Shown here: positions 810-57,260 of the stretch, piece after piece | Layout: each line of letters opens with the position of its first letter | Position numbering within the stretch: position 1 is the stretch's first letter | Virus record (IMG/VR): IMGVR_UViG_3300005336_000007 | Coordinates: 1-57,627 of that record | Reading direction: 5' to 3' (one strand) | Length of the DNA stretch: 57,627 nt | Source: a virus | Notes under the pieces: generated by a model | What the model saw: the letters and a program-made list of their open reading frames with translations, nothing else | What the model was told of the DNA's origin: nothing | Databases searched by the model: none | Position numbers and translations under genes: made by a program

Positions 810-2036
810 ATGGACGCGAGACAAGAGAAGGGACTTCAAATAGCCGCCACAACCAAGCTAGTACCTGAAGGCAGCATGTGGCTCGTTCCGTCGCAAGCTG
901 GCAAGGGAAAATACGTGGTCGATGCCGATGCTAATCAGTGTACTTGTCCAGACTTTGAAACCCGCCAAACTACTTGCAAACACATCTATGCGGTGAGTTT
1001 TACAATTGAGCGCGAGACGACCGCAAACGGTCAGACTGTCGTCACTGAGACGTTAAAGGTCACGCGCAAGACCTACACGCAGGACTGGAAGGCTTACAAC
1101 AAGGCGCAGACTCACGAGAAGTCAGAACTGCAAGCGTTGCTCTATGAACTATGCAGAAACGTGCCTGAGCCTGAAAAGCGCAAAGGCAGAGGTAGACCAC
1201 AACTACCTCTGAGTGACATGATCTTTTCGTCAACCTACAAGATTTATTCAACCGTCTCAGGTCGCCGCTTTGCCACGGATCTTCGCGAAGCAAAACAACG
1301 TGGCTATCTCTCGCACTTGCCGCACTACAACAGTGTCTTTAACTACCTGGAATCGGAAGCGTTGACACCGTACCTTTACGAGTTGATTACGCTCAGTGCT
1401 GCGCCGCTCAGATCGATTGAGGAAGACTTCGCGGTCGATAGCTCAGGATTCAGCACGGGACAGTTTATGCGTTGGTTAGACGTGAAATACGGCACGAAGG
1501 AAGATCGTCGCCAGTGGCTCAAACTGCACCTAACATGCGGAGTTAAAACCAACATCGTTACAGCCGTGCAAGTGAGCGACGGATACGCGCATGACTATCC
1601 GTTCTTTAAGGGCTTGATTGATCGCACAGTTGAAGCGGGATTCAAGATGAAGGAAGTAAGCGCAGACAAAGGCTACCTCGGAGCAGACAACATGCTGGCG
1701 ACATTACGCCACGGCGCGATCCCTTATATCCCGTTCAAGACGAACTCAGTACCACAGTCAGGCTATGAACCAAAGTCGCAACTGTGGACACGGATGTATC
1801 ACTTCTACGCCTTGCATCGTGGGGAGTTTCTACAGCACTACCACAAACGATCCAACATTGAAACGACCTTTCACATGATCAAATCAAAGTTTGGTCAACG
1901 GTTGCGGAGTCGGACACTCACGGCGCAGATCAACGAAGCTCTGTGTAAGGTGCTTTGTCATAACCTCTGCGTCGTGATTCAATCAGTGCATGAATTAGGG
2001 ATTGAAACCAATTTTGCAGAGGCGCTGCCACAATGA
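810..2036 (+). CDS. SWIM zinc-finger plus DDE transposase-type protein
   Basis: 408 residues. Residues about 35-60 form a SWIM zinc finger (CTC...TCKH pattern, C-x-C-xn-C-x-H). A DDE nuclease fold follows: first Asp in VDSSGF (near 207), second in SADKGYLG (near 285), and the Glu in NIETTFHMIKSKFG (near 352), so the catalytic triad looks intact and the family is that of IS4/IS5-type transposases. SWIM fingers occur in some transposase families. The gene is the only + strand gene in its neighbourhood and ends 17 bases from the converging gene at 2053. I found no terminal inverted repeats or target duplication, so it may be a stranded or domesticated transposase and not a mobile IS. The ATG follows AAGGAGAG. 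Confidence 0.85.
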   Translation: MDARQEKGLQIAATTKLVPEGSMWLVPSQAGKGKYVVDADANQCTCPDFETRQTTCKHIYAVSFTIERETTANGQTVVTETLKVTRKTYTQDWKAYNKAQTHEKSELQALLYELCRNVPEPEKRKGRGRPQLPLSDMIFSSTYKIYSTVSGRRFATDLREAKQRGYLSHLPHYNSVFNYLESEALTPYLYELITLSAAPLRSIEEDFAVDSSGFSTGQFMRWLDVKYGTKEDRRQWLKLHLTCGVKTNIVTAVQVSDGYAHDYPFFKGLIDRTVEAGFKMKEVSADKGYLGADNMLATLRHGAIPYIPFKTNSVPQSGYEPKSQLWTRMYHFYALHRGEFLQHYHKRSNIETTFHMIKSKFGQRLRSRTLTAQINEALCKVLCHNLCVVIQSVHELGIETNFAEALPQ

Positions 2037-2052
2037 TGTCTGTAACGTCCTC

Positions 2053-2545
2053 TTACTGGATAGGCCTGCGCATTACAACTACGGCGCTTCCATATGTAGT
2101 ACCCTCAACACCTTTTTCAGTTTGATGCAAGATGTCCCACGACTTACCTAGCTTGCTTACCCATATGCCGTTTGATAACTGTCGCGCCATATGCATCGGA
2201 ACACCTTGCGTGTCCAGATATAAAGCTACCTTTTCGTATCCCGTTTCTAAACTGAAATCCGTTGGGCCAACCTCGTAGTGACCGTCTTGCTTGAACGCTT
2301 CAACATAACAGTCTTTGCTGTACGAACGCCACGCAATCGGCCAAAAAGCCATCAGTAGGATCAAGAGTCGGTTCCCACCAATGATCACAGTCGTCCGCTG
2401 CCCATGCTATGCAATTATAATATTCGTCTGCCTCACTCTCTGGGCAAAAGATCTCATGTTTAAGATTTGGAAACCAGCATTCCAGAAGTAGTCGAATGAG
2501 TAATAATTCGCTGGCGTTTACAAATAGCCGTGCTGGCGTCCCCAT
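2053..2545 (-). pseudogene. DUF7689-like protein, interrupted by a frameshift
   Basis: The N-terminal half (YNCIAWAAD then WWEP) is in one frame and the C-terminal half (VALYLDTQGVPMHMARQL, then SKLGKSWDILH and YGSAVVVMRRP) in the next. Together they match the arrangement I know from DUF7689 proteins. The frames join at a run of five A (+ strand 2343-2347); one base fewer there would give a continuous protein of about 163 residues. This can be a true mutation or an indel error. The ATG at 2543-2545 overlaps the preceding gene; no better in-frame start is visible. Function unknown. Confidence 0.6.
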
Positions 2546-2976
2546 GTAATCCAATCCTCGCGCATTTCCTTGATGCGACCAGCGTGTTCCGCTGGTACTG
2601 GGTTTTCGTCTGAGATCAAACGCAACGCCAAAAACCAATGTCCGCCATTCTGTTGCAGTTCTTTTAAGATCAAGGGCAGCGCAATTTTGCCCATAGCCAA
2701 AATGGCCAAATGCGCAGGATGCGCATGATCCCGTGTTACAGATGAAGACAGCAATGTATCCTTGAGCCATTGGCTTGCTAAGCGCTGGAACTTGAGTTCG
2801 TCGTTATGCGTTGGGGCTTGTACCCCTATGCTAGACATTAGCGTCACCGTATTCGTATCGCGGTCGAATATAGAAAAGCGAGCAACGCCCATTGTGAGTG
2901 TCTGAGGCGCACTTGTTTGCGCCCCACTTAAACGTGCTGAAACTGGTTCCGGTAATGGCGGTGTGTCCATGCTCAT
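2518..2976 (-). CDS. conserved hypothetical protein with HPAH...WGRQHGYL domain
   Basis: 152 residues. The C-terminal 70 residues (HPAHLAILAMG, then GHWFLALRLI, NPVPAE, ending WITWGRQHGYL) match a pattern common to phage and bacterial proteins of unknown function, often with HPAY-IIGMG and HWFWALRAIT. The N-terminal half is variable. The ATG overlaps the TGA of the gene at 2973 as ATGA, so the two are translationally coupled. Confidence 0.8.
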   Translation of the reverse strand: MSMDTPPLPEPVSARLSGAQTSAPQTLTMGVARFSIFDRDTNTVTLMSSIGVQAPTHNDELKFQRLASQWLKDTLLSSSVTRDHAHPAHLAILAMGKIALPLILKELQQNGGHWFLALRLISDENPVPAEHAGRIKEMREDWITWGRQHGYL

Positions 2977-3275
2977 GTAGCTTGTGCTTCCTCAGGTTTA
3001 GCCGTGACCTGCAAGCCTCTATTATCAGCAATAGCCTTGAGAAGAACTTCAAGCCCGTTAGATGCAACCATAATACGGGCAATACATTTCGCCTTGTAAG
3101 AAGGCTCGACTCGGGTAGTTGCGTCCAAACCGCCCTCTGGAATTCGCGTTTGGCTTTGGAAAAAATAGAGTGTAGTAACGTTGCTTTTGGTATCGGTGGC
3201 CACCATAAACACGTCGCAAAACACTCCCAAGGTTTCTTCTGTCCCGATAAACTGCCAAGGTGTTTCGTCAGCCAT
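2973..3275 (-). CDS. hypothetical protein, weakly DUF3467-like
   Basis: 100 residues. The alternating pattern of a short beta-rich half followed by a CIARIMVASNGLEVLLKAI segment recalls DUF3467-type proteins; this is a weak resemblance. The ATG follows GGAGGACGCT. First gene of a three-gene minus-strand unit with 2518 and 2053. The region upstream carries AGGCA-type boxes. Confidence 0.65.
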   Translation of the reverse strand: MADETPWQFIGTEETLGVFCDVFMVATDTKSNVTTLYFFQSQTRIPEGGLDATTRVEPSYKAKCIARIMVASNGLEVLLKAIADNRGLQVTAKPEEAQAT

Positions 3276-3519
3276 AGCGTCCTCCAGTGGGATAGTTTGG
3301 GACGCCTACTGTATCCCTCAAGGCTGGGGCTGAGCAAGACTGCGAGCCAATTAGTCATTTTGATTTTTTAGGCAGAAACGATGGTTTCCATTTTAATGGG
3401 CATTAATTAGGCAAAGCCGCACTTCTCGTGCCTGACCTTCAGAATCTCGCTTTACAGTTATGCCGTTCATTGATTCATTCTCGCTCGCTGTCGTTGTGAT
3501 GGTGGATGAAGAGCATCTA
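3276..3519 (-). promoter_or_regulatory. intergenic region with two AGGCA boxes
   Basis: No gene is evident in these 244 bases. On the + strand there are two AT-rich boxes, TTTTTTAGGCAGAAACG (starting at 3365) and TTAATTAGGCAAAGC (ending at 3417). They resemble three or four boxes at 56476-56559 upstream of another minus-strand operon, in the opposite orientation relative to the gene. They are probably binding sites for a phage or host regulator. Confidence 0.35.
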
Positions 3520-15424: not shown

Positions 15425-15500
15425 CGGGGTGTAGCGCAGATGGCCGCGCGCTTGCCTTGGGAGCAAGAGGACGCAAGTTCGAGTCTTGCCACCCCGACCA
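15425..15500 (+). tRNA. tRNA-Pro, anticodon TGG
   Basis: A full cloverleaf: acceptor CGGGGTG/CACCCCG (perfect 7 bp, C1-G72 as usual for tRNA-Pro), D arm GCGC/GCGC with a GG-containing loop, anticodon arm CTTGC/GCAAG with loop CTTGGGA, T arm GCAAG-TTCGAGT-CTTGC, discriminator A and encoded CCA. The loop gives anticodon TGG, reading CCN proline codons. Confidence 0.95.
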
Positions 15501-55499: not shown

Positions 55500-55601
55500 A
55501 TAAAAGAAAAGCGATTGATAGTCGCGTCCGCGCTTTTGCCCGCCTTAACCTGCCTTCAGGAACAAGAAAAGACTTTCGGCGTAACGCGACTATCAATCGC
55601 T
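55500..55601 (-). promoter_or_regulatory. long leader hairpin with T-tract, possible attenuator
   Basis: An 18-bp perfect inverted repeat (55510-55527 with 55584-55601; AGCGATTGATAGTCGCGT and its complement) encloses 56 bases. The 56 bases contain a smaller hairpin CCTG-AAGG-CAGG and a CGCC/GGCG pair. On the minus strand the stem is followed by TTTTCTTTTA, as in intrinsic terminators, only 16 bases before the DUF1376 ATG. It probably controls expression of the replication genes; a separate small RNA or a single-strand initiation site are alternatives. Confidence 0.6.
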
Positions 55602-56976: not shown

Positions 56977-57005
56977 ACTATAGACACATTGTTTCATCTG
57001 TGCAA
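56977..57005 (-). promoter_or_regulatory. sigma70 promoter
   Basis: Minus strand TTGCAC (57000-57005), 17-base spacer, TATAGT (56977-56982), driving the gene at 56887. It begins immediately after the putative terminator at 57025-57075. Confidence 0.65.
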
Positions 57006-57020
57006 GTTCTACGGTAAATT

Positions 57021-57075
57021 AAAAGGGCCGGCTCACCTTGCGAGTCTCTGTGGCCTCGCTCCAGTTCACCAGCCC
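57021..57075 (-). terminator. intrinsic terminator-like hairpin after the tRNA
   Basis: On the minus strand GGGCTGG (57069-57075) pairs with CCGGCCC (57025-57031), followed by TTTT; inside, GCGAG pairs with CTCGC. Together about 51 bases. It would end the transcript that carries the tRNA and its antisense anticodon copy. Confidence 0.5.
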
Positions 57076-57085
57076 TTGTTGATTT

Positions 57086-57136
57086 GGTTTCCGTCCCTAT
57101 ACCTCAACGGAACCGAACAACGGTCTACTAAACCGT
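57086..57136 (-). ncRNA. antisense copy of the tRNA anticodon arm, plus hairpin
   Basis: The + strand 57118-57136 (core ACGGT-CTACTAA-ACCGT) matches the tRNA anticodon arm (minus strand 57207-57225) at 18 of 19 bases but in inverted orientation. In the minus-strand transcript it therefore lies about 40 bases after the tRNA and could pair with its anticodon arm over 19 bp, with a single U-G pair. A hairpin GGTTTCCGT/ACGGAACC (57086-57094, 57107-57114) follows. Alternatives are a relic attP core or a decoy stem-loop. Confidence 0.5.
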
Positions 57137-57175
57137 ATTTTACTTACTATTTATGCTTTACGCAATAATTCTGAG

Positions 57176-57249
57176 TGCCCCCGGCAGGACTCGAACCTGC
57201 AACCAACAGTTTAGTAGACCGTTGCTCTATCCAATTGAGCTACGGGGGC
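57176..57249 (-). tRNA. tRNA with anticodon ACT (class I, Arg-like body)
   Basis: Cloverleaf: acceptor GCCCCCG/CGGGGGC (7 bp), D arm GCTC/GAGC with A20 in the loop, anticodon arm ACGGT-CTACTAA-ACTGT, 5-base variable loop, T arm GCAGG-TTCGAGT-CCTGC, discriminator A, CCA not encoded. U33, A37, T54-T55-C56 and A58 are standard. Anticodon 34-36 is ACT, which reads AGU serine codons, but serine tRNAs have a long variable arm; A20 and C35 are arginine identity elements. It may derive from tRNA-Arg TCT or ACG. Confidence 0.85.
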
Positions 57250-57260
57250 ATAAAACAAGA

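What the first reader, a model, noticed from the sequence alone, without database searches (positions are those of the whole stretch)
57176..57249. Phage tRNA with anticodon ACT on an arginine-like body: possible recoding of AGU
Seen: a canonical class I tRNA whose loop CTACTAA gives anticodon ACT. The same loop appears in a second copy at 57118-57136, so a single base error is unlikely. Known: serine tRNAs have a long variable arm, absent here; ArgRS recognises A20, C35 and U/G36, all present. Inference: the tRNA may carry arginine yet read AGU (Ser), or, if A34 becomes inosine as in tRNA-Arg ACG (loop differs only at base 36), also AGC/AGA. It could be a mistranslating, decoy or AGA-reading tRNA.
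Basis: partly seen in the sequence, partly recalled or inferred. Interest (0 to 1): 0.75.

Follow-up and report, generated by a model that had tools for sequence, protein, structure and literature searches.

The report
Phage arginine tRNA reading serine codons
A phage carries an intact arginine-type tRNA whose anticodon reads a serine codon, and next to it lies a stretch that could make an RNA pairing with that anticodon; related odd tRNAs turn up in many phages and bacteria, often as cargo of transposons, which suggests mobile, switched-off 'wrong-reading' tRNAs rather than a changed genetic code.

Summary
The tRNA is real: minus strand, 57249 to 57176, class I, anticodon ACU, no broken stem pair, and every bacterial ArgRS determinant (A20, C35, U36, A73). 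The 'second copy' is an inverted, degraded copy of the tRNA's 5' half (57084-57136). It gives an RNA antisense to the anticodon arm: 16 nt perfect, about 22 bp with G·U. That is the best such match among 447 tRNAs.

ACU tRNAs with this body recur in about 10 phage lineages and about 27 bacterial contigs (37 distinct). A20 is kept in 33/37. Anticodon stems are specifically weakened: 27/37, against 9/107 ordinary UCU tRNAs. At least 14/37 sit beside an IS1-like transposase. Elements with 8-bp target duplications enclose such a tRNA in L046 and Leu-type UUA tRNAs in L182 and L191-194. Three other loci (L036, L176, L022) also carry RNA antisense to their own tRNA.

AGU recoding is not supported. 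AGU is 14% of serine codons here, and in three genes shared with a relative phage whose contig lacks the tRNA, AGU aligns with Ser 5 times and Arg once.

Best reading: an arginine-accepting, AGY-reading missense tRNA held down by antisense RNA. Mechanism and toxicity are inferred, not shown.

The parts
57176..57249 (-). tRNA gene, class I, Arg-type body, anticodon ACU at 57213-57215
   Evidence: ARAGORN, Rfam RF00005 68.2 bits
57209..57224 (-). 16 nt of the tRNA (anticodon arm) with a perfect complement 76 nt further 3'
57118..57133 (-). perfect antisense of the tRNA anticodon arm (GTTTAGTAGACCGTTG); also a hairpin with loop UUAGUAG complementary to CUACUAA
57084..57136 (-). inverted degraded copy of tRNA 5' half plus leader; predicted 5' part of an antisense small RNA
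   Evidence: inverted repeat I1; best of 447 tRNAs; own-flank duplex -30.7 kcal/mol, 0 of 150 control regions as good
57025..57077 (-). predicted stem-loop followed by TTTT, possible 3' end of the small RNA
   Evidence: fold of 57000-57139, z = -3.33, 0 of 200 shuffles as stable; the simple terminator scan did not list it

Best explanation
A two-RNA locus. (1) An intact tRNA that keeps what bacterial ArgRS reads (A20, C35, U36, A73) but has A34 instead of U34, so it would be charged with arginine and read AGU (perhaps AGC) serine codons: a missense tRNA. (2) Directly downstream, on the same strand, an RNA segment antisense to its anticodon arm and 5' half, ending in a stable hairpin. Pairing (in trans as a small RNA, or in cis in a long precursor) would stop the tRNA folding or decoding, so it is off by default and acts only if the antisense RNA is lost or titrated. 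It would work like an RNA-only toxin-antitoxin pair or a silenced missense suppressor carried by a mobile element. Shown: both sequences, their complementarity, the recurrence of the tRNA class, and similar antisense segments at three other loci. Inferred: expression, charging, misreading, silencing, toxicity.
For: Intact tRNA. A20 kept in 33/37 ACU and 8/8 GCU tRNAs of many bodies, N73 = A/G in 31/37 ACU; Arg determinants from PMC9976931. Antisense: best of 447 tRNAs, duplex -30.7 kcal/mol; cofold gain -16.8 with its own tRNA, against 0 to -5.2 for the same segment with three other tRNAs. L036 and L176 have a comparable segment downstream and L022 upstream, each fitting its own, different anticodon arm; L176 and L022 have a 10-of-12 promoter match just before it. 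Mobile context of the class: IS1-like transposase beside 14/37 ACU tRNAs, 0 of 120 UCU controls by the same criterion; TIR/TSD-bounded elements with a tRNA inside; other passengers of these elements look like HTH antitoxin-type genes (by eye).
Against: No expression data. The promoter before the window's antisense segment is weak (7/12, matched by 24.5% of random sites; L036 8/12, 9.3%). Clear antisense segments exist at only 4 of about 45 ACU/GCU loci, and L022's cofold gain is small (-1.2). L176 is not an outlier in the automatic test (score 25) and was picked out by eye. The antisense could be a by-product of an inverted duplication. ArgRS charging of an A34 tRNA is untested. The nearest relative phage lacks the tRNA, so long-term selection in this lineage is not shown.
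Confidence: 0.3

Rival explanations
1. A missense (AGY-reading, Arg-carrying) tRNA that acts without regulation; the inverted copy is an accident of an inverted duplication.
For: The duplication covers leader plus 5' half, as one copying event would give, in the window and in L036. Most ACU loci, including nearly all IS-borne ones, have no clear antisense.
Against: In the window the anticodon arm is the best kept part (16 nt perfect) while the whole copy is only 74%. L176 shows pieces complementary to three separate tRNA regions, not one duplication.
Confidence: 0.2
2. A translation helper that still reads AGA/AGG: A34 (or inosine 34, or relaxed pairing through a weak anticodon stem) lets it serve arginine codons while evading a host nuclease that cuts tRNA-Arg(UCU).
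For: Phage tRNAs with anticodon-loop changes that evade VapC, PrrC and colicins are proposed (PMC10264068). tRNAs with 4-bp anticodon stems can misread, shown for tRNA-Trp in E. coli (PMC13092985), and 27/37 ACU tRNAs have weakened anticodon stems.
Against: It would also misread AGU/AGC. The window tRNA has an intact anticodon stem. GCU versions, which should not read AGA, occur too. Other tRNAs in the same transposon family carry UUA or GUA on Leu- or Ser-type bodies, which are not arginine helpers.
Confidence: 0.15
3. A decaying tRNA-Arg(UCU) passenger; base 34 drifted and the gene has no role.
For: 9/37 ACU tRNAs have acceptor-stem mismatches against 0/107 UCU. The nearest relative lacks the gene.
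Against: The window copy has no broken pair. In the class the mismatches concentrate in the anticodon stem (42/185, against 5/185 in the T stem, p = 3e-9) and are mostly pyrimidine-pyrimidine (30/42). A20 is kept in 33/37.
Confidence: 0.2
4. A DNA site: an attachment core or terminal inverted repeat (for example of a tiny transposon-like element, 57084-57258) rather than an RNA device.
For: The anticodon arm is a dyad with a 7-bp centre, as in tRNA-targeting recombinases (own knowledge), and the two arms are inverted. L355, a distant relative by its helicase, ends in a broken tRNA-like stretch next to what reads by eye like a phage integrase.
Against: No integrase among the roughly 35 window ORFs scanned (not all ORFs). 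No target duplication found. The inverted copy in L176 is discontinuous.
Confidence: 0.1
5. One reading: AGU is recoded to arginine in this phage.
For: The tRNA could insert Arg at AGU.
Against: AGT is used at a normal share (85/616 serine codons); AGT positions are Ser in the relative 5 of 6 times.
Confidence: 0.03

Closest known systems
Bacterial and phage tRNA-Arg(UCU) (argU type)
   Same: Body, A20, C35, U36, short variable loop, TAGCTCA..GGATAGAGC D arm
   Different: A34 instead of U34, so the cognate codon is Ser AGU rather than Arg AGA; antisense segment beside it
Phage tRNAs with anticodon-loop mutations that evade tRNA nucleases (van den Berg et al. 2023, PMC10264068)
   Same: Phage tRNA with altered anticodon loop
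   Different: There loops change to avoid cleavage; here the decoded amino acid would change
Nonsense and missense suppressor tRNAs
   Same: Anticodon and aminoacylation identity disagree; Leu-type UUA and Ser-type GUA relatives sit in the same transposon family
   Different: Natural, transposon-borne, and with antisense RNA at some loci
Type I toxin-antitoxin systems and CreTA (RNA toxin acting on tRNA-Arg UCU; CreTA from own knowledge)
   Same: Small RNA control; link to arginine tRNA; mobile elements
   Different: Here the possible toxin would itself be a tRNA and the possible antitoxin its antisense RNA; untested
YrlA Y RNAs (RF02553)
   Same: tRNA-like RNA with a long stem; weak match over 57111-57228, 27.6 bits
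   Different: Far below the gathering score of 69; no Ro/Rsr (TROVE) protein among the window ORFs scanned

Membership tests
tRNA (RF00005, class I elongator) | Score above gathering, cloverleaf with all four stems | tested here: met
   68.2 bits against 29; all stems paired
tRNA-Arg (bacterial identity) | A20, C35, U/G36, A/G73 | tested here: met
   All four present in the sequence; determinants listed in PMC9976931
tRNA-Arg (bacterial identity) | Charging by ArgRS | not testable with these tools
   Needs aminoacylation assay
tRNA-Arg decoding set | Anticodon complementary to an Arg codon | tested here: not met
   Anticodon ACU
tRNA-Ser | Long variable arm needed by SerRS | tested here: not met
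   Variable loop of about 5 nt
Passenger of the IS1-like element | Transposase and GGTAGTG..TCAGTTTG terminal repeats around the tRNA | tested here: not met
   Motif in window at chance level, none near the tRNA; no such ends within 4-6 kb
RNA-only toxin-antitoxin pair | Antisense complementarity of the two RNAs | tested here: met
RNA-only toxin-antitoxin pair | Toxicity of one RNA and neutralisation by the other | not testable with these tools
   Needs expression in cells
RNA-only toxin-antitoxin pair | Independent promoter for the antisense RNA | tested here: inconclusive
   Window 7/12 (weak); L176 and L022 10/12
YrlA Y RNA (RF02553) | Gathering score | tested here: not met
   27.6 against 69 bits
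Recoded phage (AGU to Arg) | AGU at conserved Arg positions | tested here: not met
   5 Ser, 1 Arg at AGT positions; small sample

The most novel reading that the evidence does not exclude
Phages and IS1-like transposons carry a family of selfish or sabotage modules whose active agent is a mistranslating tRNA (aminoacylation identity kept, anticodon exchanged: Arg-type/ACU or GCU, Leu-type/UUA, Ser-type/GUA), neutralised at some loci by an antisense RNA to its anticodon arm: a toxin-antitoxin class in which the toxin is a tRNA.
Probability: 0.15. Interest if true: 0.88.

Novelty: new variant of a known kind. Interest (0 to 1): 0.6.

Why it matters
Why phages carry tRNAs is an old question; codon supply and nuclease evasion are the usual answers. 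A recurring class whose synthetase determinants are kept while the anticodon is exchanged does not fit either answer and points to deliberate mistranslation or a non-decoding role. That transposons carry such tRNAs as cargo, some as the only obvious one, is to my knowledge not described; my few literature searches in an open-access library found nothing. The claim is directly testable with a tRNA gene and a reporter in a laboratory strain.

Tried and rejected
Window relatives: no near phage in INPHARED by megablast; no relative of the neighbouring 106-aa protein in viral contigs; helicase relatives L354 and L355 found, and neither record has a tRNA above the cut-off.

Pattern for ACU tRNA followed by TYAGTAG: 13 hits, none a tRNA, all chance.

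Idea that the odd tRNA suppresses a stop inside the linked transposase: rejected, no consistent in-frame stop; where stops occur they do not fit the linked anticodon.

Idea that the tRNA forms the terminal repeat of the IS1-like elements: rejected; true ends are GGTAGTG..TCAGTTTG with 8-bp target duplications outside the tRNA.

Large-loop hairpins upstream of IS-borne tRNAs as a conserved antisense RNA: not supported by the duplex test at most loci.

AGU recoding: not supported. Y RNA: not supported.

Tyrosine integrase near the ACU tRNAs: a motif scan of neighbouring ORFs gave none, and Pfam found transposases instead.

Full report
OBSERVATION. The window is an IMG/VR virus record of 57.6 kb classed linear, with terminase, major head protein, helicase, primase and methyltransferases, so it is a tailed-phage contig. 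ARAGORN and Rfam both find a tRNA at 57176-57249, minus strand, anticodon ACU, 68.2 bits. It has no broken pair and is a close match to the tRNA-Arg(UCU) body: TAGCTCA-ATTGGATAGAGC D arm with A20, C35, U36, A73, a short variable loop. Base 34 is A, where tRNA-Arg(UCU) has U. The 'second copy' is not a tRNA: it is an inverted 53-nt, 74% copy of leader plus 5' half at 57084-57136.

IS ACU AN ERROR OR A ONE-OFF? No. A strict pattern (class I D arm of this type plus loop CTACTAA) matches 15 viral stretches, about 10 lineages, of which L004 is not a tRNA; a slightly wider pattern matches 32 contigs of GTDB genomes across many phyla, a few of them not tRNAs. Of distinct tRNAs, A20, the main bacterial ArgRS determinant (PMC9976931), is kept in 33/37 ACU, 8/8 GCU and 107/107 UCU. 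The ACU set has weakened anticodon stems: 42/185 pairs broken, 30 of them pyrimidine-pyrimidine, in 27/37 tRNAs, against 10/535 pairs in UCU controls. The T stem (5/185) and acceptor stem (19/259) of the same tRNAs suffer much less (p = 3e-9 and 5e-6). That is not uniform decay. The pattern was designed by me, so it samples only part of the class. The window tRNA has none of these mismatches.

MOBILE CONTEXT OF THE CLASS. Pfam and tblastn show IS1-like transposases (HTH plus DDE, about 280 aa) beside 14 of 37 ACU tRNAs, usually 50-250 nt downstream on the same strand, against 0 of 120 UCU control loci by the same criterion (one 40-residue fragment at E = 0.001 ignored); p = 2e-10, or p = 0.005 for viral loci alone. 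The controls are all viral while most of the 14 are genome contigs, so the first p value overstates the contrast. Two others sit by IS1595- and ISL3-like transposases (L039, L044). Starting instead from the transposase (A1), 80 viral loci gave 4 independent ones with an upstream tRNA (L182, L191-194, L209, L247), and 52 genome loci gave 6 (L301, L311, L314, L323, L333, L338). By my reading several have an anticodon that does not belong to the body: Leu-type long-arm tRNA with A73 and UUA (L182, L191), long-arm tRNA with G73 and GUA (L323, L338, best read as Ser-type), Arg-type with GCU (L209, L333). L247, L311 and L314 look like Glu- or Gly-type bodies with AGU, UAC and UUC but are uncertain; L301 may be an ordinary tRNA-Thr(CGU). 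The elements end in GGTAGTG(TC/GG)TCAGTTTG repeats with 8-bp target duplications (L182 AATCTCCC, L046 CGCCGGCT, L192/L194 CTTCCCCT); in L182 and L191-194 the UUA tRNA lies between left end and transposase, in L046 the ACU tRNA lies between transposase and right end. Other elements of the family carry HTH antitoxin-like or P63C-like genes in that place (read by eye). The window's own tRNA is NOT in such an element.

THE ANTISENSE SEGMENT. Among 447 distinct tRNAs in all fetched loci, the window has the strongest inverted copy of its own 5' half within 150 nt (score 50); next is L036 (30), also an ACU tRNA; the 99th percentile is 25. L176, a GCU tRNA at 25, on inspection also has one, with pieces complementary to the anticodon loop, the D arm and tRNA positions of about 39-48 (by eye). 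L022 has 11 nt perfectly complementary upstream, in a stretch that ends in a hairpin and T run just before the tRNA. Own-flank duplexes are better than all 150 control regions for the window, L036 and L022 (L030 too, but there the match lies in a local hairpin). Cofolding gains are -16.8, -6.7, -7.5 and -1.2 kcal/mol with the own partner; non-cognate combinations are mostly near 0, the largest -5.2. The window segment folds into a stable structure with a long stem before TTTT (z = -3.3). Promoter matches before the antisense start are good in L176 and L022 (10/12) but weak in L036 and in the window. So complementarity in the window is solid; a separate small RNA there is plausible, not shown. 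An alternative is cis action: a long precursor in which the trailer pairs with the anticodon arm. The weak YrlA match (27.6 bits against a gathering score of 69) probably reflects that long stem.

DOES THE PHAGE RECODE AGU? No sign of it. AGT is 85 of 616 serine codons in 25 ORFs; in three proteins aligned with L354 (56-81% identity), whose 81-kb contig has no tRNA, AGT positions are Ser 5 times and Arg once. Six positions are few, but the normal usage agrees.

MECHANISM. Shown: an intact tRNA with arginine determinants and a serine-codon anticodon; a neighbouring antisense segment; recurrence; transposon carriage of the class. Inferred: charging with Arg (follows from PMC9976931), reading of AGU and perhaps AGC, silencing by the antisense RNA, and use as a toxin-antitoxin-like or conditional missense device. 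Weakened anticodon stems in relatives could lower decoding or broaden it (a 4-bp-stem tRNA-Trp reads UGA in E. coli, PMC13092985). Nuclease evasion (PMC10264068) is a serious rival but does not explain GCU, Leu-type/UUA or Ser-type/GUA relatives.

VERDICT. Observation confirmed; arginine-type/ACU inference supported by sequence; recoding not supported. The finding opens onto a wider class of mobile, identity-mismatched tRNAs that I could not find described in the papers searched; those searches were few and limited to open-access text.

Noticed in passing
window 15425-15500 (+): Second tRNA of the phage, tRNA-Pro(UGG), ordinary in appearance.
   Followed up: partly
window 810-2036 (+): DDE_Tnp_1 transposase with a SWIM zinc finger near the contig start; about 1.2 kb from the tRNA only if the genome were circular.
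   Followed up: partly
L182 around 2018-3390; L191-L194; L046: IS1-like transposons in phages and bacteria with GGTAGTG..TCAGTTTG ends and 8-bp target duplications that carry tRNAs (Leu-type UUA in L182 and L191-194, Arg-type ACU in L046); in L182 no other clear passenger gene was seen. Deserves its own study.
   Followed up: partly
L323, L338: Long-arm tRNAs with G73 (Ser-type) and anticodon GUA (Tyr) just upstream of IS1-like transposases.
   Followed up: partly
L203, L212, L232, L183, L185, L195: Upstream of the same transposase family: divergent genes that read like HTH antitoxins or P63C-domain proteins, apparently exchangeable passengers.
   Followed up: no
L039, L044, L175: ACU or GCU tRNAs beside IS1595-type and ISL3-type transposases, so the link is not limited to one transposase family.
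   Followed up: partly
L360 55-125 and following: Distant relative of the window phage (by helicase) ends in a broken tRNA-Arg(UCG)-like stretch next to a gene that reads like a phage integrase, so relatives may be temperate.
   Followed up: no
L356 (Streptomyces phage Sham 70727-73800): Phage record with a Ro-like RNA-binding protein gene near tRNA genes; its tRNA annotated 'tRNA-Ser(tct)' lies where relatives are annotated tRNA-Arg.
   Followed up: no
window 55510-55601: 18-nt perfect inverted repeat (AGCGATTGATAGTCGCGT), 56 nt apart.
   Followed up: no
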